Shown in pieces: positions 1,561 through 61,311 of a stretch of DNA of 64,000 bases; positions within the stretch are counted from its first letter, which is position 1, and each line of letters starts with the position of its first letter. Location of the stretch: contig NC_092628.1 in NCBI RefSeq assembly GCF_039555335.1, positions 34,184,965 through 34,248,964 on the forward strand, given 5' to 3'. A model generated the notes under the pieces. It was not told the origin of the DNA. It searched no databases and saw nothing but the letters and a program-made list of their open reading frames with translations. The stretch comes from Amphiura filiformis (Eukaryota > Echinodermata > Ophiuroidea > Amphilepidida > Amphiuridae). Made by a program: the position numbers and the translations under genes.

Positions 1561-2023
1561 TACATTGGCATTAATGAAATAGCTGTTTAAGTTAGTTCAC
1601 TTGTCTGTATAAATAATACATTAACAATTTTACTACGACATTAAATTACTGCATGGGAGGGAAGTAACTGTCTATTAATAGGAATATTCCGCTAATGTAA
1701 TTTATGAATCATATTCATAAACAACAATCTAGTTGATACATATACTGTTATTGCTGATATTGGTATCGATGAGATACCTTTCGTATTCTGCATTTCTACA
1801 AACGCCGCTAAAGAAACCGAAGCATATTTCTAATACCAGGATTTGGGAGGAGGAGTTAAGTCGCGGCCTACTGTTGAATTTTGTAAATGTTTAATGACGC
1901 CGATGTGGATAGATCATTACTTTTAGTTAACATTCATAAAGCACACACACTGAGCGAATACATATTGGCTACTCTCAGTGTCAAATTAAACGATACGGTA
2001 TATTTGAAGGACGGCATTTCAAA
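1560..2023. other. Upstream flank of the GPCR gene
   Basis: This unique AT-rich DNA lies between the minisatellite and the GPCR start codon. A TATAAATA-like word lies near 1608-1615 and an ATTGG (inverted CCAAT) near 1964-1968. Either could belong to the promoter, but neither position is diagnostic. An in-frame stop (TAA) at 1937-1939 lies before the chosen ATG with no other in-frame ATG between them, so the coding region cannot extend further upstream without a splice. Confidence 0.4.
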
Positions 2024-3085
2024 ATGGAGGGAGACAGTGTAACGTCAGAAATGTTTACAGCTACTATTAGTATTACCGTAAATGAACCTTTCACACTCCG
2101 CGCTGGAAGCATTATCGCGCTCATTCTCTTACCTATTCTAACGTTATGCGGATTATTAGGAAATCTTTTAGTTGTCATATCAGTGTTTAAATTCAAGCAG
2201 CTTCGAATCGTCCCGAATTTCTTCATCGTGTCGCTTGCTGTTGCCGATCTTTTAGTCTGTATGGTCGTCATGCCACTGGCGCTGTACCAAGACATCAACA
2301 ACGGTAACTGGGGCTTGCCCCCATGGTTGTGTGATGTTTGGGTATCGCTTGATGTCCTCATGTCTACAGCGTCAATTTGGAACTTATGCGTCATTTCATT
2401 AGACCGTTTTCTTGCCATCACAAGACCACATCAGTACGCACGACGTCGCACCGCGTTCACGGTTCTATTCGCCGTTCTCACCACATGGTTGCTTGCTGCA
2501 TTCTTGTCCATCCCAACGCTTCTGTTCGTCGGTGGACATGATCCAACACAGACCAGTACATGCGTTATCAACGTGACCCCAACATTTGTCATCATATCTT
2601 CTTGCGTGGCATTTTACATTCCGTGTGCCATTGTGTTGGTACTCTACTGGCGAATCCTAGTCGCAGCAAGAAGGCACGTTTTACATCGGCGTCGAGTAGA
2701 TCCAGGCATCGGGAGCACCAGCAGAGAAGATGCAACCGCGTCAACAGCCATAGACGATGGCACCACTAACGATCAACGTTTCGGCGAAAACCAACCAGCC
2801 GAAAACACTAACCCTCAAAGAAAAATTATCTCAGTCACTAGAGAGCGAAAGGCTGCGCTTGTTTTAGCAATCGTCGTGGGAATCTTCATTTGTTGCTGGT
2901 TGCCGTTTTTCTTAGTTTTTGTATCTTTAGGTATTTGTCCACAATGCCATATATCTATAACTGCTATTGTAATTGTTACATGGTTAGGATGGTGTAACAG
3001 TATTTTAAATCCAATCATTTACACAATATTTAACAAAGAATTTCGTACGGCGTTTAGAAAAATTATGACCTGTACAATGAAATAG
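2024..3085 (+). CDS. Aminergic-type class A GPCR (5-HT1/D2-like), intronless
   Basis: This is a complete 353-residue rhodopsin-family receptor in one exon. Seen: N47 of TM1 (GNLLV), D75 of TM2 (LAVADLL), C103 before TM3, the amine-binding aspartate D110 (position 3.32), DRF at 127-129 in place of DRY, W155 of TM4, and C180 in loop 2 beside an NVT sequon at 183. TM5 has S192, S193, A196 and P200. Loop 3 is ~60 residues, ends in basic RERK, and leads into TM6 CWLPFF (291-296). Loop 3 outside has CPQC (305-308). TM7 has NPIIY (329-333). A short tail ends in Cys350, a likely palmitoylation site. A short tail with a longish third loop is usual for Gi-coupled 5-HT1, D2 and alpha2 receptors. A at 5.46 resembles serotonin receptors, while TM6-TM7 resembles D2/5-HT1. 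Position 7.43 is W323 where aminergic receptors normally have Tyr. Start: AAAATGG context with an in-frame stop upstream. There is no signal peptide, which is normal for the family. The ligand cannot be fixed from sequence; serotonin, dopamine, octopamine or another amine are all possible. Class is sure, subtype is not. Confidence 0.95.
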   Translation: MEGDSVTSEMFTATISITVNEPFTLRAGSIIALILLPILTLCGLLGNLLVVISVFKFKQLRIVPNFFIVSLAVADLLVCMVVMPLALYQDINNGNWGLPPWLCDVWVSLDVLMSTASIWNLCVISLDRFLAITRPHQYARRRTAFTVLFAVLTTWLLAAFLSIPTLLFVGGHDPTQTSTCVINVTPTFVIISSCVAFYIPCAIVLVLYWRILVAARRHVLHRRRVDPGIGSTSREDATASTAIDDGTTNDQRFGENQPAENTNPQRKIISVTRERKAALVLAIVVGIFICCWLPFFLVFVSLGICPQCHISITAIVIVTWLGWCNSILNPIIYTIFNKEFRTAFRKIMTCTMK

Positions 3086-10898: not shown

Positions 10899-10971
10899 GA
10901 CCCCTGGCGGGACTCGAACCCGCAATCTTCGGTTTAGGAGACCGACGCCTTCTCCATTAGGCCACAGGGGC
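10899..10971 (-). tRNA. tRNA-Arg (anticodon CCT)
   Basis: Read on the minus strand, a full cloverleaf forms. The acceptor stem is GCCCCTG with CAGGGGT (G1:U72 wobble, as I recall for other animal tRNA-Arg-CCT). The A box is TGGCCTAATGG. The anticodon stem TCGGT/ACCGA closes the loop CTCCTAA, giving anticodon CCT, which decodes AGG. The B box is GGTTCGAGTCC. No intron. A T9 terminator follows within ~10 bases of the 3' end. The discriminator base reads C, where A or G is usual for tRNA-Arg. The intact stems and both internal promoters favour a working gene over a SINE head. Confidence 0.93.
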
Positions 10972-26775: not shown

Positions 26776-26783
26776 GTTTTTAT

Positions 26784-27580
26784 GGTGACATCCCGCTATC
26801 TCTAAGGTCCGCTATCTCTAAGGTTCGCTATCTCTAAGGTTCGCTATCACTAACGTGTAAAGTCTATGGAGACAGAATCCCGCTATCTCTAATAGAGAAA
26901 AGGTTCGCTATACCTAAAAAAAGGTCCGCTACTTCTAAGGTTCGATATCACTAATTTAAAATAAGGTTCGCTAGTTCTAAGGTTCGATATCACTAATTTT
27001 AAATAAGGTTCGCTATCACTAATTTAAAATAAGGTTCGCTATCACTAATTTTGAATAAGGTCCGCTATCACTAATTTATTGAAGGTTCGCTATCTCTAAG
27101 GTTCGTTATCACTAATTCAAATAAAGGTTCGCTATACCTAAGGTTCGCTATCACTAATTTTAAATAAGGTTCGCTATCACTAATTAATTAAGGTTCGCTA
27201 TCTCTAAGGTTCGTTATCACTAATTTCGATTAGGGTTCGCTATACCTAAGGTTCGTTATCACTAATTTTAAATAAGGTCCGCTATCTCTAATTTTAAAAA
27301 GGTCCGCTATCTCTAATGTTAAAAAGGTCCGCTATCTCTAATTTTAAAAAGGTCCGCTATCTCTAATTTCAAATAAGGTCCGCTATCTCTAATTTTAAAT
27401 AAGGTCCGCTATCTCTAATTTCAAATAAGGTCCGCTATCTCTAATTTCAAATAAGGTCCGCTATCTCTAATTTTAAATAGCGCCCGCTATTCCTAATTTT
27501 ATATAAAGCCCACTATACATCTCTAATTTTCAATAAAGTTCGCTCTTTCTAATTTAAATTAGCCCACTATCTCTGACTTA
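26784..27580 (+). repeat. Left arm: (GGTTCGCTATCACTAATTT)n satellite
   Basis: About 30 units combine a constant GGTYCGCTATC(T/A)CTAA core with a variable A/T linker, giving periods of about 16 or 26 bp. Outer units carry GGTTCGC, central ones GGTCCGC, and the innermost GCCCGC/GCCCAC. Confidence 0.95.
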
Positions 27581-30500
27581 AAAGTTATTTTAAATAAAGC
27601 GGGAAAGGCGCCCTCGAGTTGAATAGTTTATACGGGTGAAAATATACACATAAAGTACACGAACTCTTAAACAAGAAATGTCTTTAAGAAGACAACGCCA
27701 TGTATGCAGATCAACTTCATTTTTATTGCAAGTATATAATGCTAGTAAATTTGAATGTTTGGCACAACTAACCGGGTGTGAAATATTGGCATTTATTGGT
27801 AAATACACCACCAATGACATACTAGGAAATACTCAAAATTTTCATGTTGAAAGCTGAATTGAAAAATGTTTGCGTAAATAGGTCTACATTTAAAAGGGCA
27901 TTTCGTGATCCACAGCCTCACCCCCCCCCCACTTTTCTCAAAAAAAGTTGAGATTTTTATACCACTGGAAACCTCTGGCTACGTACATAATGTTTATTTA
28001 CAAAATATTTCTTGCAGATTAATTCGTTTTGCAAAGATATCGTGAAATTTGAACTTCGTTCTGGTATACCAGAACGAAATTACAACACATTGTCTATGGA
28101 GCATTGTAATACACATAATCATGCATAACTCGCAAACGCAAAATCGGAATCAACTGAAATTTTTGGAATAAGCTTTTTTTTTTTTTTTTTACTGAAAAAT
28201 GTCACAAAAAGAGGATGCTAGGATCACAAAATACTCCTTTAATTCATACCTGTAACAAACTGCTCAATTGAAAGCACATCATCCGAGTTATACGACAATC
28301 TATATTCAGACAACCTTAAGAATGTTTGCTGCTTAAGGGATTTCATATCAATTCATAACTCCATATCTCTGTTCTTTACCTCTTCTGTGTTTTACCATTA
28401 TTTTACCATTTACCAATGTTTGGTAAATTACAGTTAAAATCCATTAAAAACATGGTATTTTATTTGAGATATTTATTCGCAATGTATAGTTTATTGGTAG
28501 TTACACTGATCACATTATAATCAAAAAGACTGATTACTCAATCCCAGGGATTCCTGGGCTCAAACCAATCTTTATTTTCTGAATGTGTTGATAATATTGT
28601 TACTACTATAAACTGTCCAGTTGCTATACCAAAAATGTGTAAAACCAAAGCCGCCACTATCTACCCCAATTACTGGTATTTACCCCCCCACCACCACCAC
28701 CACCACCATCACCACCAGTGTCACTCCCAACATCAATTAGTGATGGTAGTAGCCTTCTGCACTGTTTATACCCAACTTGGTTCAACAGTCCTGTCTGGTC
28801 AGATAATTGCTCATTATTATCGTTGAATTAGTGATCACACTTGTTGTTGACAGCTTATCAGCACACTGGATCAGCGGTGCAATTATATCCTTTTTTTTCA
28901 TAGAGCAATTGTTCAAAATGTTTAATGTCAAATGGTTCCTAAAAACCTTTTTTGTGAATGGATTTTAATCGTTGGAAAAACAAAATGTATTTTTAATATA
29001 TTATTTATTTCATTAACAGCAATTTCCTAAGTTTCCAGCCATAAATAATCATAGAGTTTCACCTGTTTACAAAATAAGTGTTTATTTCAGATTTCCAATT
29101 AATTATGTTATCAGTAAACCTGATAGGAGGTCAAATCCAAATCTTGCTAATATTTACATTGTTATAGTCAAAAACGATACTTTGTCCTGGTAGTCCCTGG
29201 CAACCCAGTCTGCATGTAGCTGTTTCGTAAACATGCACGACAGAAACCGGCTGTGAAGGAGCCTACATGCACGTAAACAACTTTCTAGTATAATAAAATC
29301 CGTTTTGGAGTATAATAAAGAAAGTCATGCATTGGCAACATGAAGGAAATACCTATTGCCCACTTGGTAAAATGCATACTCGTAGCCCAATCTTGTACAT
29401 CATAGCACCCAGTTTAGGTTTGTGGTTTGAAATGTTGCAATTAAACATTAGTTCTTTCAAATATGAAACGCTAAAACACAAATCTAGAACAAACACTCAT
29501 TATATTTAGAAAGATATAGCAAATTTTCCATGATAGAGATTGGACCCAAAACAAAGCACACCCAAATTAGGTGACAATTCAGAATTAAGCCATGGCTGGA
29601 AAAAAAAAAAGCCGTTTCTTAAACACACTAAAACTAAATTACAAGATAAAGTAGTCAATAGATAGAGAATTTTGTCATGCATATTTCCATGGCCTGCTAC
29701 TATAAACTTGATGTGGGAGTTACCACTAGCTGTTGATGGAAGCAGGAGGCTGCGGTCTTCGGATGGCTGGCAAAGCTGCCGATCTGAAGCCTGATGTGTT
29801 ATTGATGTAACTGCTTTATGGTAGGATGTTCCAAATGACACTGACCCCAAAGTGACCCCTTTTGTTGGGAAAAAATCCTTGTTTTCCTTTCCATCACATG
29901 TTGTTTGGAAGATATAAATTGCATAAAGGACCCCCTGTTCTGATTTTGATGATATCAATGATATATTTAAAAATGGAAGTAACTCGACGTATGGCCTAAG
30001 AATGCGACGACCCCTATTTAGCACCTAAAGTCTGTGGAAAGTTTTTTTTGGGTGGTATGTACCATTTAAGGAGCATTTCCATGCGTTTTCGTGTCTTTAT
30101 CTATTTAAAATGCACGTGAAAAAATGAGGACATCCACAAGCGCGTGCATGGACGCCACCAGGTTTTTCGCTGTACGTGCGTTTGCCGGGAATAGGCCTAC
30201 ATTCATTTCCAATTACATAACAGCTCCGATTTTGGAAGAAGCTAGAAACCTTTTAATATGAGTAAAGAAGGGTTTAAAAATATAGAAAACAATCTTTATT
30301 GGTGTTTAAATTACAAAGAGACTTTTCAATGTTATTGTTAGCTGTTTTAACTATTTTTTTTGTAATTTAAACTCAAGTTTTGGCCTTCAATTTTGATTAA
30401 ATTGCATAAAATTAAGGTTTTTTAAATAATTCATATAGGTTTCTAGTTTGCTCTATCTATACCAATGTTTAGTGTGTTCCAAATTATTACTAATAATCAA

Positions 30501-31240
30501 AGTTGAATTTATATTAAAAATTTAATTTCAAATAGTCAATCATCACATTTGCTTATTGGACAAAACGGGTTAAATCCGATGCTGGATGGGTGGGATAGGC
30601 CTGTTTGTGTTTCAATTTTTGATGATAGTACTTGTAAAAGATGTTCAAACAACTTTTATTCCTAACATCTATTGATATCTTCATGAAAGTTGCAAATCAG
30701 CAACTATAATGCGTTGAATTCGCCAGCGTGTCTAAGTATATATAAAAGAAAATAACCCAAAAATTAATGATTGTGAAGCAGTTTCCGGCAAAAGTTTATC
30801 ACGCCTATAGTCCCAACTTTGCATAAAATCGTGTTTTACAGCTATTGTGAATGTGATCTCTATAAATTTGAAAATAAAAGGCGAAAATTTGAGCAATGTT
30901 TACGATTATGTGCGCATGAACATACGAGTTCAAAACGTGGTTAGCAGTCAGATGTAGGGTCTAAATACGGGAAAATCTGTCGCTAATTTTCTTAAAAAGT
31001 AGGCCTAAACCTAAAAATGTGGTGTCATTTTCAGATATGCGAATTTTGTTCTGATTTATGATATCAACAATATTATTATAAAGTTGGAGGTAACTCGACT
31101 AATGTCCTAAAACGCGACCCCCTATTTAGCACGTAGATTTAGGGAAAAAAGTCTGAAATTAATTGGCAACTTCTGTAGATTAAATTCAGACTTCCGCTCT
31201 CCCCATGGTTCATTTAGAATTGGTAAATGAATCATGAAAC
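27581..31240. other. Middle domain of the foldback-like element, first part
   Basis: No coding region is supported. It contains a perfect 24-bp palindrome at 28055-28078, a (CAC)n tract at 28683-28717, and a diverged direct-repeat pair at 29940-30040 and 31055-31160 sharing GTAACTCGAC and CCCCTATTTAGCAC. Confidence 0.45.
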
Positions 31241-31402
31241 TACTCCGTCCTTCGGAGGGGACGTTAAGCCGTCAGTCCCGTGTGCAGAGAGCCATACCTG
31301 TATATTTCGCAGCCAGTTTCGAAAAGAGTAGGGTGTTAACCCCTGACTGTTTCCAACCCGTCCCGGTGTTCAAATCAAATCAAATCAAATATAAAAAAAA
31401 AT
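31241..31402 (+). mobile_element. SINE 3' fragment with (CAAAT)n tail
   Basis: TTCGGAGGGGACGTTAAGCC, GTCCCGTGTGCAGAGAGCC and TTTCGAAAAGAGTAGGG are shared, with changes, with the body of the SINE at 16132-16612. The tail is CAAATCAAATCAAATCAAAT then A-rich. No tRNA-like head remains. Confidence 0.75.
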
Positions 31403-31735
31403 TAGCATAGATTATCGTAGAGGGCAGTACACAGCCCACTGTTTTTGCCAGGCTTATTGACAATAATCGTATGGTATTGCATATCGTATGGATTCCCCAT
31501 CTCTTTCCCCCTCCTCTCCTATCTCCCCTCTCTTTTCCCCTTCTTTTTCTCTCTCTCTCTCTCTCTCCTTTTCCTTTTTTTTCCTTCGCTAGGGCGGGGG
31601 CCCAAATAGCGCTAAGGCGAGGGTCTGAGGGGCGGGGCCCAAATAGGCAATTTTTGTCAGGGGGGCGATTGAAGCTAGTTTTGCAAAAAACGAGGTTTTT
31701 CTCCATCGGGTTCGTCCAAAATTTGTAATCACGTT

Positions 31736-31801
31736 TTCTCTCTTTCTTTCTTTCTTTGTTGTTCTTTTTCTTTCTTTTCTCTTTCTTTCTTTCTTTCTTT
31801 T

Positions 31802-31865
<64 letters not shown>

Positions 31866-31875
31866 TTTTTTTTTA
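31736..31875. repeat. (CTTT)n microsatellite
   Basis: Long TTTC/CTTT tract, nearly pure from 31783 to 31865. It is preceded by a (CT)n tract at 31547-31567. Lys/Arg/Glu-rich or Phe/Ser/Leu-rich frames over it are artefacts. Confidence 0.95.
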
Positions 31876-31879
31876 TTCA

Positions 31880-32829
31880 CTATTTCTTTATTCTTTCTTG
31901 CTCCTTTCTTTTTTTGTGTATATTTGATTGATTCGCGGACTACGGTGATTGATTGTTTTTCACTTTATATAATTCAGAAATTTGTAGTCCTGCTAAGTCT
32001 ATCTTGTTGAATATTCCCAAATTCGATTTACAAATAATTGCATTGTGATGTTGTTGTTGATGTTATTTATTTATTTCATCAAATATATCAAGGCTCTATA
32101 AATTTAATATCAACACATTTTCTAGACGGTGGCGCATCTTCATGGGGCGGGCATAGGGGCCGGAGGAAGTGCCCCCCAATCGATTTTAAAATTTATAAAA
32201 TCCTCTTGAAAAATTGCCGAAAACGGCTTGTGCCCCCCCAGCATCACGAGCTCCGGGCACGAGCTGAGCCAAGTTTCATGTCTTGACCGTGGATCGATAT
32301 TCTATTATAATTATTAAAGTAGGCTTATACCTCCGGCACGCTTGTTCATTTTCTGCATGGCTGTTTCTGTTATGAACTTACGCCCCTCTGAAATCAAGCG
32401 CATGAAAAACCTTTCGGCTAACCTTAATTTTGGAAAATTGTCCAATTTCCAACTTCCTCAGACACCTCCCCCTGCATAGACAATAGTGGATAAACAAGTC
32501 CGATTTCGTTTTTGTCACCCGGTACTTTATGTTTAACACAATTATTTTATAGGCCTACAATTATAACAGAAAAAACTTGTGCCAAAATGGTCCACCAAAT
32601 GACTTTAATTAGGTCTTCATTTTGGAAAGGTTTCTCACTTCTTAGGGGACACAACATACATGTATATCCCCAACACCTGAGCTTAATGCGATCGGTTATC
32701 AATTGTAGGCCTATAGGCCTACTGGTACGCGACGGTGAACTGATTCAAATCTCTTTCTGGGTTGTTCGGACCGGACCAGTATACGTACTAGCGATCTTGC
32801 GAACTTTATCATGTTTATTAAAATAAAAT
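31880..32829. other. Middle domain of the foldback-like element, last part
   Basis: No gene. At 32131-32260 there is GC-rich text with GTGCCCCCC on both sides, which looks like a worn small element. Confidence 0.35.
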
Positions 32830-33600
32830 TACTGATCATAGCGAACCTTACAGTAAATTAGAAATAACGGGTCCTATTTTAAATTAGATGGGCCTTATAG
32901 CGGGCCTTATTTTTAATTAGAGATAGCGGGCTTTATTTTCGGATAGCGAATTTTATTTTCAATTACAGATATGAAGCGGGCTTTATATACAATTAGAGTT
33001 AGCGAACCCTATTTGGAATTAGAGACAACGAACCTTATTTGAAATTAGTGATAGCGAACCTGATTTAAATTTAGAGATAGCGAACCTTATTTAAAATTAG
33101 AGATAGCGTAACCTTATTTAAAATTAGATATAGCGAACCTTATTTAAAATTAGAGATAGCGAACCTTATTATAAATTAGAGATAGCGAATCTTGTTTGAA
33201 ATTAGAGATAGCTTAACCTTATTTAAAATTAGTGATAGCGAACCTTAGAGATAGCGAACCTTAGAGATAGCGAACCTTAGAGATAGCGGACCTTATTTGA
33301 AATTAGAGATAGCGAACCTTAGGGATACCGGGATTGTTAAAATTAGAGATAGCGGACCTTATTTTAAATTAGTGATAGCGAACCTTAGAGATAGCGAACC
33401 TTCAATAAATTAGTGATAGCGGACCTTTTTAAAATTAGACATAGCGAACCTTATTTAAAATTAGTGATAACTTGAACCTTAGGTATAGCGAACCCTAATC
33501 GAAATTAGTGATAACGAACCTTAGAGATAGCGGACCTTTTTCGTAATTAGTGATAACGAACCTTAGAGATAGCGAACCTTAGAGATAGCGAACCGTAACC
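32830..33600 (-). repeat. Right arm: same satellite, reverse orientation
   Basis: The reverse complement gives the same CGCTATC(T/A)CTAA units as the left arm. The same trend is seen: GGTTCGC outside, AAGCCCGC inside. Rare variants such as TTCGATTAGGGTTCGC and AATTTATTGAAGG occur in both arms. Confidence 0.95.
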
Positions 33601-33638
33601 GTTTTTATAGCCTGATTTGTACTGGAAATACTATGTAG

Positions 33639-44049: not shown

Positions 44050-44295
44050 CCATATGTGACCGTACATACGAATGAGCGTAAATGTCCTCAATTGTATTCT
44101 GAGTTACAGTGTAAAATGGGCATGAAGGTCATATTCATAGGTATTTCAATTTGGTGCTACGTGTATCTCATTAAATGAGGTACACATAGCACCAAATTGA
44201 GGTACCTATGAATACGACCTTCATGCCCATTTTACACTGTAACTCAGAATACAATTGAGGACATTTATGCTCATTCGTTGTACGGTCACATATGG
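44050..44295. mobile_element. 246-bp full-length hairpin element, almost no loop
   Basis: The two halves (44050-44171 and 44174-44295) are reverse complements with few mismatches. They run from CCATATGTGACCGTACA at the outer edge to CTCATTAAATGAG at the centre. Loop is a base or so. No target duplication is clear. Confidence 0.9.
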
Positions 44296-46765: not shown

Positions 46766-47034
46766 CCTCTTTCCTTCCTGTTGTGCAAAAAGCAGTTTTA
46801 GAGTTCGGGTTAAAGCAAAGGTCCTGTTAATTTGTAACCACTTTGCACAGACCAAAATAATGGTTAATAGTGCTATTAAAGCTTTACAGCCCACCATTTA
46901 TCATCCAGGAACATCTATTTTATATAAATGAGGTGAAAAGTAAATTAGGTTCTGAAGTACGGACAAAATTAATGATTAACTTTATAATTTCAAGTTTATA
47001 AGCAATTATACAGAAATTACATCTCAGAAATGTA

Positions 47035-47669
47035 AACACCTCAAAAGAAATAAGTCCCCCTCTGAACATGTTGTCATAACATCGTAAGGTTTCGTTTTGT
47101 ACCAACAAAACTAACTTTGAAATAATCATATAAGTGTTTACTAAGTGCTGTGTGAAAATGAGAGATTTCCATGACTTCAGGGCTGAATGAGCCTAAATTG
47201 AAGACAAAAAGTGCCCTTTCCAAAAGTCACAAAGCACGCCTATGCTTGTTAACTGCAAGGCGTATTGGGACAAGGAATGGAACTGACCATCTTACAACTC
47301 ACTGTGCTGAACTCTGCACCAAGGGGATTTGCATGGCTGAATGATCAAGAATTGATACACATTGAAGTAAATGTTCACTTGGTGAGGATTTTAAACTGCA
47401 CTCAAACACATGGGGTTTTCCATTAGTAACAAGCCATGAATCAACTTTTGTAACAAGCATATAGGCCTACTTTGTGACTTTTGAAAAGGGCAGTTTTTGC
47501 CTTCAATTTAGGTTCATTCAGTCCTGAAGTCATGGAAATCTCTCATTTTCACACAGCACTTAGTAAACAGTCATATAATAATTTCAAAGTTAATTTTGTT
47601 GGTACAAAACGAAACCTTACGATGTTATGACGACATGTTCAGAGGGGGACTTATTTCTTTTGAGGTGTT
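47035..47669. mobile_element. 635-bp MITE with ~215-bp inverted arms, TA-flanked
   Basis: Left arm 47035-47248 and right arm 47450-47669 are reverse complements with few mismatches; outer end AACACCTCAAAAGAAATAAG. TA flanks both ends, as for Tc1/mariner-type targets. The ~200-bp centre is unique and non-coding. Confidence 0.88.
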
Positions 47670-47671
47670 TA

Positions 47672-51169: not shown

Positions 51170-51950
51170 GGGTGAAGGTCACTCGAGGTCATCCAGGGGT
51201 CATCTAAGGTCAAATTACTAAAACTGTCGTATGGGCATGAAACTTGGTGGGTACAGTTAACATTTAGAGTCAAATTTTCTGACGGTCATTTTGGGGTCAT
51301 CCGAGGTCACTTAGGGGTCATCCGAGGTCAAATTACTAAAACTGTCGTATGAGCATGAAACTTGATGGATACACTTAACATTATGAGTCAAAGTTTGGAA
51401 GGTAATTTCGAGGTCATCCAAGGTCACCAAGGGGTCATCTGAGGTCAAATTACTAAAACTGTCGTATGGGCATGAAACTTGGTGGGTACAGTCAACATTT
51501 AGAGTCAAATTATCGGACGGTCATTTCGGGGTCATCCAAGGTCACCAAGGGGTCACCTGAGGTCAAATTACTAAAAACTTGTATGGGCATGAAACTTGGT
51601 GGGTACACTTAACATTTAGAGTCAAATTTTCAGACGGTTATTTTGGGGTCATCTGAGGTCACCAAGGGGTCAGCTGAGGTCAAATTACTAAAAACTGTTG
51701 TATGGGCATGAAACTTTGTGGGTACAGTCAACATTTAGAGTCAAATTTTTGGAAGGTCATTTCGGGGTTATCCGAGGTCACCCAGGGGTCATCTGAGGTT
51801 AAGTTACTAAAAACTCGCATGGGCATGAAACTTGGTGGGTACAGTCAACATTTCAAGCCAAATTTTTGGAATGTCATTTTGGGGTCATCCAAGGTCACTC
51901 AGGGGTCATCTGTGGTCAAATTACTAAAACCTCATGTGGATATGAAACTT
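51170..51950. repeat. 118-bp satellite, seven units, rich in AGGTCA half-sites
   Basis: The marker CAAATTACTA recurs at 51211, 51329, 51446, 51564, 51681, ~51799 and 51917, a period of 117-119 bp. Each unit has GGGTCATCCGAGGTCA, five bases, then GGGTCATCTGAGGTCA, followed by ATGGGCATGAAACTTGGTGG and ACATTTAGAGTCAAATTTT. Small variants distinguish units. No frame runs through all seven. Confidence 0.95.
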
Positions 51951-57600: not shown

Positions 57601-57923
57601 TTTTTCAAAATAATGAAAAAAAAATGCGGAAAAAGCAATTTTGTCACTCTATTAAGCTAAAAAAATGCACATAATGGTGTATATTTCAGTTTGTTCAAAA
57701 CAAATATTTTGAAAAAATGAGAAAACCTTCCCTAGACTTTGATGTGCTCTAAACGATAGTGCAAAAGGTTTACCTTTTGCTTGCATATTTTTCGAGTTAT
57801 CTTGTCACAAAAATCGTACAATATTGTTAAAAATGAACTCTGAGAAATCGACGTTTTAGTAAAAAAATGTCAAAATTATGCACAAAACGTCCTCATATTT
57901 TAAAACGGCAAGACTTTCACGCT
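54610..57923. other. Long intergenic AT-rich stretch
   Basis: No supported gene in 3.3 kb. Noted: a ~35-bp direct repeat with CACAAAGTCACGTAGGAA (55147 and 55218), and a weak inverted pair TTAGGGAAGGTTTT / AAAACCTTCCCTA at 57566 and 57722-57735. Confidence 0.35.
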
Positions 57924-60900
57924 TGTAAAAGCTGTATCTGGTGCATGGTCTAAATATGCATCTTTTTGCACCAATGAATCTATAATGTCTGTTTTAGTGC
58001 GCCTAAATCCAAAATAATTAAAAAATCTAAGTGGCTTTTTTTCACTGCAAATTTTGTTTTGTTTACATCACATTTGCTGGCGTTAACAACATAATGAATG
58101 CGCCTTGACTGCGTTGGACATACTGGCGCGCAGAGTTGCGCCGGCGTCACGCTGACGCGAATCATGGTAATAACAAGATTTCGCATTCGCCAAGCATTGC
58201 CGACTCATTATTTCCGCCAATTTACTAAGCTGTCTTGAGCCATGTGACTTTTTAGAGTTGAAAAGAGTGAAATAAATCAAGCAAAAATACAAGTAAATAT
58301 TAGGAAGTTGTATTTTATCAGTTTCAAGTGAAAGAATACATCTTAGTGTTGATAAATATCAAGAAATCTCAAATTCGGGTGTGGACGAATGTGTCTCCCC
58401 TACTCTGGCCTTGTACTTCACAAGTACATGTTAAGCAGGGACAGAGTCAATCTTGTTTGGTTTGGTTTATCAAATTAATAGGATGACATCAATCTTTTGG
58501 TTTGGTCCCTTATAGGTAACATAAAGTCAACAACATTATTAATATTCAGTTTTTCAAAAACCTAAATTTGAAATTAATGAAACATATTAAGTTAAAAAAT
58601 TATTTGCCCAAATTGTTTTTGAGACATTTTAAACCTTAAATTCTAATAAGATGTAAAAATTAATTTTGGTGCATCTTTGGAAATCCAATGTACAATGTAT
58701 AGTTTTGAATGTTTCCAGCCCAATGCTAATGCTGCACCGGCATTTAAGCTTCAATTTGAAGAAATATTATTCTTAGAATATAGACCTAGTAATTAAAACA
58801 AAAGCAATATAATTATTGAGATTAAAAAACAAAAGTAGAGAATATTTGAGACATGTTAAATTGTATATTAATTGTGATAAGGAAAAACCTAATAATAGTA
58901 ATATGAGAGTAGTTTTACAGGAAATTATGTGCAGATTATTGATACTTATTTTCATTTTCACTTTTATTTATTTCTTGTAAACATGTTTCATTGTGATATA
59001 TTACACAATCAACCTTGGGCTTGCGATTCATTAAAGGTATCCTCTATATTTATTGTAAAAGCTGTATCTGGTGCATGGTCTAAATATGCATCTTTTTGCA
59101 CCAATGAATCTATAATGTCTGTTTTTAGTGCGCCTAAATCCAAAATAATTAAAAAATCTAAGTGGCTTTTTCACTGCAAATTTTTGTTTTGTTTACATCA
59201 CATTTGCTGGCGTTAACAACATAATGAATGCGCCTTGACTGCGTTGGACATACGCTTAGAGTGGCGCCGCGGCACACAACCCGAATCGCGCGCGGAATCA
59301 AAATAATTCGCATTCGCGCATTGCCGACTCATTATTTCCCGCCAATTTACTAAGCTGTCTTGAGCCATGTGACTTTTTAGAGTTGAAAAGAGTGAAATAA
59401 ATCAAGCAAAAATACAAGTAAATATTAGGAAGTTGTATTTTTATCAGTTTCAAGTGAAAGAATACATCTTAGTGTTGATAAATATCAAGAAATCTCAAAT
59501 TCGGGTGTGGACGAATGTGTCTCCCCTTACTCTGGCCTTGTACTTCACAAGTACATGTTAAGCAGGGACAGAGTCAATCTTGTTTGGTTTGGTTTATCAA
59601 ATTAATAGGATGACATCAATCTTTTGGTTTGGTCCCTTATAGGTAACATAAAGTCAACAACATTATTAATATTCAGTTTTTCAAAAACCTAAATTTGAAA
59701 TTAATGAAACATATTAAGTTAAAAAATTATTTGCCCAAATTGTTTTTGAGACATTTTAAACCTTAAATTCTAATAAGATGTAAAAATTAATTTTGGTGCA
59801 TCTTTGGAAATCCAATGTACAATGTATAGTTTTGAATGTTTCCAGCCCAATGCTAATGCTGCACCGGCATTTAGCTTCAATTTGAAGAAATATTATTCTT
59901 AGAATATAGACCTAGTAATTAAAACAAAAGCAATATAATTATTGAGATTAAAAAACAAAAGTAGAGAATATTTGAGACATGTTAAATTGTATATTAATTG
60001 TGATAAGGAAAAACCTAATAATAGTAATATGAGAGTAGTTTTACAGGAAATTATGTGCAGATTATTGATACTTATTTTCATTTTCACTTTTATTTATTTC
60101 TTGTAAACATGTTTCATTGTGATATATTACACAATCAACCTTGGGCTTGCGATTCATTAAAGGTATCCTCTATATTTATTGTAAAAGCTGTATCTGGTGC
60201 ATGGTCTAAATATGCATCTTTTTGCACCAATGAATCTATAATGTCTGTTTTAGTGCGCCTAAATCCAAAATAATTAAAAAATCTAAGTGGCTTTTTTTTC
60301 ACTGCAAATTTTTGTTTTGTTTACATCACATTTGCTGGCGTTAACAACATAATGAATGCGCCTTGACTGCGTTGGACATCGCGCAGAGTTGCGCTTGGCG
60401 TCACGCTTGACTTGAATCATGGGTAATAACAAGATTTCGCATTCAGCGCATTGCCGACTCATTATTTCCGCCAATTTACTAAGCTGTCTTGAGCCATGTG
60501 ACTTTTTAGAGTTGAAAAGAGTGAAATAAATCAAGCAAAAATACAAGTAAATATTAGGAAGTTGTATTTTTATCAGTTTCAAGTGAAAGAATACATCTTA
60601 GTGTTGATAAATATCAAGAAATCTCAAATTCGGGTGTGGACGAATGTGTCTCCCCTACTCTGGCCTTTGTACTTCACAAGTACATGTTAAGCAGGGACAG
60701 AGTCAATCTTGTTTGGTTTGGTTTATCAAATTAATAGGATGACATCAATCTTTTGGTTTGGTCCCTTATAGGTAACATAAAGTCAACAACATTATTAATA
60801 TTCAGTTTTTCAAAAACCTAAATTTGAAATTAATGAAACATATTAAGTTAAAAAATTATTTGCCCAAATTGTTTTTGAGACATTTTAAACCTTAAATTCT

Positions 60901-61311
60901 AATAAGATGTAAAAATTAATTTTGGTGCATCTTTGGAAATCCAATGTACAATGTATAGTTTTGAATGTTTCCAGCCCAATGCTAATGCTGCACCGGCATT
61001 TAAGCTTCAATTTGAAGAAATATTATTCTTAGAATATAGACCTAGTAATTAAAACAAAAGCAATATAATTATTGAGATTAAAAAACAAAAGTAGAGAATA
61101 TTTGAGACATGTTAAATTGTATATTAATTGTGATAAGGAAAAACCTAATAATAGTAATATGAGAGTAGTTTTACAGGAAATTATGTGCAGATTATTGATA
61201 CTTATTTTCATTTTCACTTTTATTTATTTCTTGTAAACATGTTTCATTGTGATATATTACACAATCAACCTTGGGCTTGCGATTCATTAAAGGTATCCTC
61301 TATATTTATTG
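57924..61311. repeat. Three tandem copies of a ~1.13-kb unit
   Basis: Copies begin with TGTAAAAGCTGTATCTGGTG at 57924, 59054 and 60180; the third ends at 61311 (unit lengths 1130, 1126 and ~1131). They are almost identical except a GC-rich patch just after GCCTTGACTGCGTTGGACAT, where all three differ. Other differences are mostly single-base indels in homopolymers. Identical 62-residue frames in each copy are repeat by-products, not genes. Confidence 0.97.

What the first reader, a model, noticed from the sequence alone, without database searches (positions are those of the whole stretch)
26784..33600. Large foldback transposon whose arms are inverted satellite arrays
Two ~0.8-kb arrays of the same short tandem repeat lie 5.2 kb apart in opposite orientation. 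Their outermost 44 bases align in register, and a perfect 8-bp duplication (GTTTTTAT) flanks the pair. The sequence shows one transposed 6.8-kb unit, not two independent satellites. Fly FB and sea-urchin TU elements share this design. The CGCTATC(T/A)CTAA unit is one I do not recognise, so the family may be undescribed. How such an element is mobilised is open, since no transposase is visible.
Basis: partly seen in the sequence, partly recalled or inferred. Interest (0 to 1): 0.78.

Follow-up and report, generated by a model that had tools for sequence, protein, structure and literature searches.

The report
Foldback transposon with repeat-array arms
A 6.8-kb stretch of animal DNA looks like a single mobile element whose two ends are mirror-image arrays of a short repeat; it fits the long-known foldback type, carries no recognisable transposase gene, and could not be checked against other copies here.

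Summary
Two arrays of a CGCTATC(T/A)CTAA unit face each other at 26784-~27590 and ~32831-33600, and a perfect 8-bp direct repeat, GTTTTTAT, abuts both outer ends. At fixed boundaries such a repeat arose in 11 of 200,000 random pairs; with 3 bases of slack, 29 of 20,000. From those boundaries the first unit starts at base 11 in both arms, and a distinctive block lies near the inner end of both. Unit order beats all 500 whole-arm shuffles, but with only interior units shuffled 119 of 500 reach the observed score, so only the ends are demonstrably in register.

I read it as one non-autonomous class II foldback element: the centre shows no transposase domain in six read-through frames. A Mutator-like transposase acting in trans is the most likely mover; a Merlin-type one is not excluded, since GG termini and an 8-bp duplication suit it too. 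No genome is held for this window and no convincing related copy was found, so family, copy number and empty site are untested. The same design is published for Tm1, Tetris and Galileo. New member of a known kind, of moderate interest.

The parts
26776..26783 (.). left copy of 8-bp target-site duplication GTTTTTAT
26784..26793 (+). left terminal 10 bases GGTGACATCC, outside the first repeat unit
26784..27590 (+). left arm: 33 units of the CGCTATCTCTAA core at up to 3 mismatches; 4-base and longer spacers mixed in the outer half, mostly 13-14-base spacers in the inner half
27497..27540 (+). inner-end block with the arm's single 18-base spacer (TTTTATATAAAGCCCACT...), counterpart of 32949-32992
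27591..32830 (.). centre, 5.2 kb; 27600-32780 shows no Pfam-A family above its curated cut-off in six read-through frames; holds a TTTC microsatellite (31735-31915) and one 82% direct repeat pair (29936-30027, 31047-31135)
32831..33600 (-). right arm: 30 units at up to 3 mismatches, inverted relative to the left arm
32949..32992 (-). inner-end block with the arm's single 18-base spacer (TTGTATATAAAGCCCGCT...), 34 of 44 identical to 27497-27540, counted by eye on the alignment
33591..33600 (-). right terminal 10 bases GGTTACGGTT (read inward)
33601..33608 (.). right copy of 8-bp target-site duplication GTTTTTAT

Best explanation
It is one non-autonomous class II (cut-and-paste) foldback element, 26784-33600. 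A transposase made elsewhere in the genome, most likely of the Mutator-like (MULE) kind, recognised both ends, probably through the repeated GGTTCGCTATCTCTAA units, cut the element out and joined it at a staggered 8-bp cut at GTTTTTAT, which was then duplicated. The arms descend from one inverted-repeat end and were later changed in unit number and order by slippage or unequal exchange. Shown: the two inverted arrays, matching outer and inner ends, exact duplication, no Pfam-A transposase domain in the centre. Inferred: transposition itself, the MULE assignment, and the units as binding sites. The confidence given is for one transposed unit; MULE as its mover I put at about 0.5.
For: Exact 8-bp duplication abutting both termini. 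First unit at base 11 in both arms. An 18-base spacer occurs once per arm, near the inner end of each (this rests on the looser parse with cores of up to 5 mismatches). Arm-to-arm global score 313.5 against 249.7 (sd 21.4) for shuffled right-arm unit order, 0 of 500 reaching it; local score 677 against 443 (sd 40), 0 of 500. Arms pair at -485.6 against a mean of -36.9 for 10 mononucleotide shuffles, as any inverted pair of arrays would. Precedents, from passages seen: Tm1 has 13-15-bp tandem repeats in its arms, short asymmetric end motifs, 8-10-bp duplications (45 of 53 elements, most often 9) and a Phantom-type Mutator transposase in one class of members; Tetris has 8-10-bp duplications and no transposase, and its authors suggest Mutator; MULE duplications are 8-11 bp; Galileo arm repeats hold transposase-binding sites tested by gel shift.
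Against: No second copy, empty site or transposase was seen, and no genome was available. With only interior units shuffled, 119 of 500 reach the observed score, so unit order in the middle of the arms gives no support. A 65-nt block at 98% (27190-27254 against 33474-33538) is out of register, 406 bases from the outer end in one arm and 62 in the other. The agreement of the outer 10 bases is weak, 5 of 10 against a best of 4 elsewhere. Core conservation is only slightly above spacer conservation (0.93 against 0.86 in 25 units with 14-base spacers), and units were picked by likeness to the core, so selection for a binding site is not shown. No MULE domain was found.
Confidence: 0.8

Rival explanations
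1. The same single transposed unit, but moved by a Merlin-type (or another non-Mutator) transposase.
For: Merlin elements have conserved 5'-GG termini, 8- or 9-bp duplications and, in several families, internal tandem repeats (passages seen). This element has GG at both ends and an 8-bp duplication.
Against: Merlin inverted repeats are given as 24-462 bp; the arms here are about 770-807 bp. The foldback arms with a known transposase that I read about carry Mutator- or P-type enzymes. None of the passages shown to me (12 of 29 places in that paper) describes a Merlin element with arrays in both arms.
Confidence: 0.2
2. Two independent satellite arrays, or one array split by a local inversion, with the 8-bp match a coincidence.
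For: Middle unit order is not conserved between arms (interior shuffle 119 of 500), and one long near-identical block is out of register.
Against: An exact 8-mer at the boundaries is rare (11 of 200,000 fixed, 29 of 20,000 with slack), and outer and inner ends of the arms match. The 18-mer unit occurs nowhere else in the window.
Confidence: 0.1
3. A composite: two shorter elements with array ends moved together and carried 5.2 kb of host DNA between them. This is a variant of the transposed unit, so its odds overlap with the best explanation.
For: The centre has no recognised domain and has GC like the window (0.360 against 0.359).
Against: Each array is oriented as one arm only: core hits at up to 2 mismatches within the left array are all on the + strand and within the right array all on the - strand. 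Foldback elements are known for variable centres (Tetris).
Confidence: 0.15

Closest known systems
Tm1 (root-knot nematodes, Mutator/Foldback, PMC3169594, abstract and passages seen)
   Same: Arms made of short (13-15-bp) tandem repeats in variable number, short asymmetric motifs at the very ends, a conserved stretch at the inner end of the arms, most members without a transposase
   Different: Unit sequence differs (CGATTCAGTATCCGC there); duplications usually 9 bp; one element read about is 1,080 bp against 6.8 kb here (arm lengths there not seen)
Tetris (Drosophila virilis, PMC4079207, abstract and passages seen)
   Same: Foldback design with tandem repeats in the arms, centre without apparent coding capacity, 8-10-bp duplications, mover not found
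   Different: Unit is about 220 bp and lies inward of a flanking domain of up to 866 bp; here a 16/26-bp unit starts 10 bases from the end
Galileo (Drosophila, P superfamily, PMC3688188 and PMC4168063, abstracts and passages seen)
   Same: Long repeat-bearing arms, with transposase-binding sites in the repeats
   Different: P-type transposase, mostly 7-bp (three D. willistoni copies 8-bp) duplications with a GTANTAC-like target; the duplication here is GTTTTTAT
FB (Drosophila melanogaster) and TU (sea urchin); details recalled, nothing read beyond a mention of foldbacks in fly and sea urchin in PMC4079207
   Same: Inverted arrays as arms; TU is recalled to have about 15-bp units and 8-bp duplications
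   Different: Sequences were not compared; none was available here

Membership tests
Foldback-type class II element (a structural class) | Long inverted terminal arms made of short tandem repeats | tested here: met
Foldback-type class II element (a structural class) | Target-site duplication abutting both ends | tested here: met
   8 of 8
Foldback-type class II element (a structural class) | Multiple dispersed copies or an empty site | not testable with these tools
   No genome held. No copy in viral contigs; left arm only searched against phages and plasmids, no match; 3 short bacterial matches. None of these collections is of animal genomes
Mutator-like (MULE) superfamily | Target-site duplication of 8-11 bp | tested here: met
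   8 bp; range from PMC6446971, passages
Mutator-like (MULE) superfamily | MULE transposase domain in the element or a full-length relative | tested here: not met
   Six read-through frames of 27600-32780: no transposase family listed up to E = 1. Relatives could not be searched, so the element is not filed as a MULE
Rehavkus | 9-bp duplication and a minisatellite before the 3' inverted repeat | tested here: not met
   8 bp, and arrays form both ends; description from PMC6446971, passages
Merlin superfamily | GG termini and 8-9-bp duplication | tested here: met
   GG at both ends, 8 bp; description
Merlin superfamily | Inverted repeats of 24-462 bp | tested here: not met
   Arms about 770-807 bp; range
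Merlin superfamily | DDE_Tnp_IS1595 transposase | tested here: not met
   relatives not searchable
Sea-urchin TU elements | Sequence match of arms | not testable with these tools
   No TU sequence and no host genome held; host species not identified

The most novel reading that the evidence does not exclude
A foldback family whose arms are graded arrays of transposase sites (4-base and long joints mixed outside, long joints only inside) and whose mover is a Merlin-type or undescribed enzyme rather than a Mutator- or P-type one, so that the foldback design arose at least once more independently.
Probability: 0.2. Interest if true: 0.5.

Novelty: new member of a known kind. Interest (0 to 1): 0.3.

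Why it matters
It is a clean example of how a transposon end can become a satellite-like array, a link reported for Tetris. If copies are found in the host genome, their arms would show whether unit number tracks activity. By itself one copy tells little that is new about mechanism.

Tried and rejected
Searches for related DNA: viral contigs with three patterns gave 0. Genome contigs gave 3 stretches in 2 bacterial records' genomes: two in Prevotellamassilia timonensis and one in a Cellvibrionales MAG. The two Prevotellamassilia stretches hold a short run of a 14-base unit (CGCTATCTCTAAA, three intact copies in one, then variants) beside unrelated sequence; the MAG stretch has two units 10 bases from its contig end, so a longer run there cannot be excluded. 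I take all three as unrelated or chance and did not follow them up. Left arm against phages and plasmids: no match; the right arm was not searched.

A transposase in the centre: 5 of the 8 open frames of at least 90 aa listed in the centre were scanned, with nothing above a cut-off. Six read-through frames gave no transposase; 8 weak rows, all on the minus strand and all below their curated cut-offs, best DUF4734 at E = 0.015. A nested element with perfect ends of at least 12 bp and a duplication of 4-10 bp inside the centre: none.

Arms as an assembly palindrome: rejected, because the arms differ in length, unit number and sequence (77-98% over the 25 longest ungapped blocks). A non-repeat inner domain shared by the arms: the best local match was a weak one within array-like sequence (score 27).

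Host: a tRNA-Arg and an amine-type GPCR frame point to an animal, no more. I did not identify the species.

Papers: nine searches. A search for four strings of unit letters in paper text found 16 papers, 10 listed, on other subjects by title (titles and abstract starts seen only, six papers not seen). Original TU papers were not in the listings. No paper was read whole.

Full report
What is there. Two arrays of one short unit lie at 26784-~27590 (+) and ~32831-33600 (-). By a 12-base core at up to 3 mismatches there are 33 units on the left and 30 on the right. Units are joined either by 4-6 bases (about a 16-bp period) or by longer spacers, mostly 12-15 bases (about a 26-bp period). Nine short joints occur in each arm; the innermost ends at about base 471 of the left arm and base 361 of the right, and further in all joints are long. 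Position 8 of the core is T or A (sometimes C); all 18 A-type units are followed inward by a long spacer, against 25 of 43 others (Fisher p = 0.0006). So both arms have the same radial layout: mixed short and long joints outside, long joints inside.

Boundaries. GTTTTTAT flanks the pair at 26776-26783 and 33601-33608. The match is exactly 8: neither neighbour extends it (flanks). Random boundary pairs 6.0-7.6 kb apart in the same window gave an exact 8-mer in 11 of 200,000; with 3 bases of freedom at both ends 29 of 20,000; with AT-rich left 8-mers (5-9 kb apart) 20 of 172,593.

Are the arms one inverted repeat or two arrays of one unit? Outer ends: the first core starts at base 11 in both; the outer 10 bases agree at 5 of 10, and before the other 29 of 30 right-arm units no 10-mer does better than 4, which is weak by itself. 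Inner ends: the only 18-base spacer of each arm sits near its inner end (parse allowing up to 5 mismatches), in a block 34 of 44 identical (my count on the alignment). Whole-arm unit order: 0 of 500 shuffles of the right arm's units reach the observed global score, and none the local score. Interior units alone (first 2 and last 8 kept in place): 119 of 500 reach it. So the ends argue for common descent and the middle does not; expansion and exchange have reworked it. A 65-nt, 98% block out of register points to segment transfer or shifted duplication between arms.

Centre. 5.2 kb, GC 0.360. No Pfam-A transposase in six frames of 27600-32780 with stops read through, though Pfam would miss an undescribed enzyme. 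It contains a TTTC microsatellite, one 82% repeat pair and a 30-nt imperfect palindrome at 28052-28081. Apart from these, blastn with the low-complexity filter on found nothing shared between the centre and the window at E below 1e-3.

How it works. A cut-and-paste transposase supplied in trans is the simplest account. MULE is favoured by the published association of such arms with MULE enzymes (Tm1; the authors' suggestion for Tetris) and fits the duplication length (8-11 bp for MULEs). Merlin fits two sequence facts equally well, GG ends and 8 bp, but its inverted repeats are given as 24-462 bp, shorter than these arms. P-type is less likely: Galileo duplications are mostly 7 bp, and P ends beginning CA are recalled, not tested. 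hAT ends (CAG) are likewise recalled and do not match. Units as binding sites is by analogy with Galileo.

What is not shown. No second copy, no empty site, no species. The claim that the family is undescribed is untested: Repbase and Dfam were not among the tools, and the text search for the unit covers the held papers only.

Judgement. Ordinary in kind, well formed, probably a new family member. Interest 0.3.

Noticed in passing
57923-61308: Three head-to-tail copies of about 1.13 kb; first and third differ by 3 mismatches plus gaps over about 1.1 kb, the middle one from either by 14-16 mismatches plus gaps. A recent tandem triplication or an assembly effect.
   Followed up: partly
47033-47671: Inverted repeat with 211-nt arms, 94% complementary, 217 nt apart; ends TAAACACCTC...GAGGTGTTTA, like a small non-autonomous element.
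   Followed up: no
44068-44278: Near-perfect hairpin, 105-nt arms at 94% with a 1-nt loop.
   Followed up: no
107-1262: 34 copies of a 34-bp satellite unit, unrelated in sequence to the foldback arms by eye.
   Followed up: no
51186-51930: About six copies of a 117-bp tandem repeat.
   Followed up: no
1940-3085: Uninterrupted open frame with a full rhodopsin-type GPCR domain; best solved-structure matches are dopamine D4 and serotonin 1D receptors.
   Followed up: partly
10899-10971: tRNA-Arg (CCT), minus strand.
   Followed up: no
whole window: TAGGCCTA occurs 15 times against about 0.7 expected from rounded base composition; unexplained.
   Followed up: no
L001, L002, L003 (bacterial records): Short runs of CGCTATCTCTAA-like units in Prevotellamassilia timonensis (two places) and at a contig end of a Cellvibrionales MAG; taken as unrelated.
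   Followed up: partly
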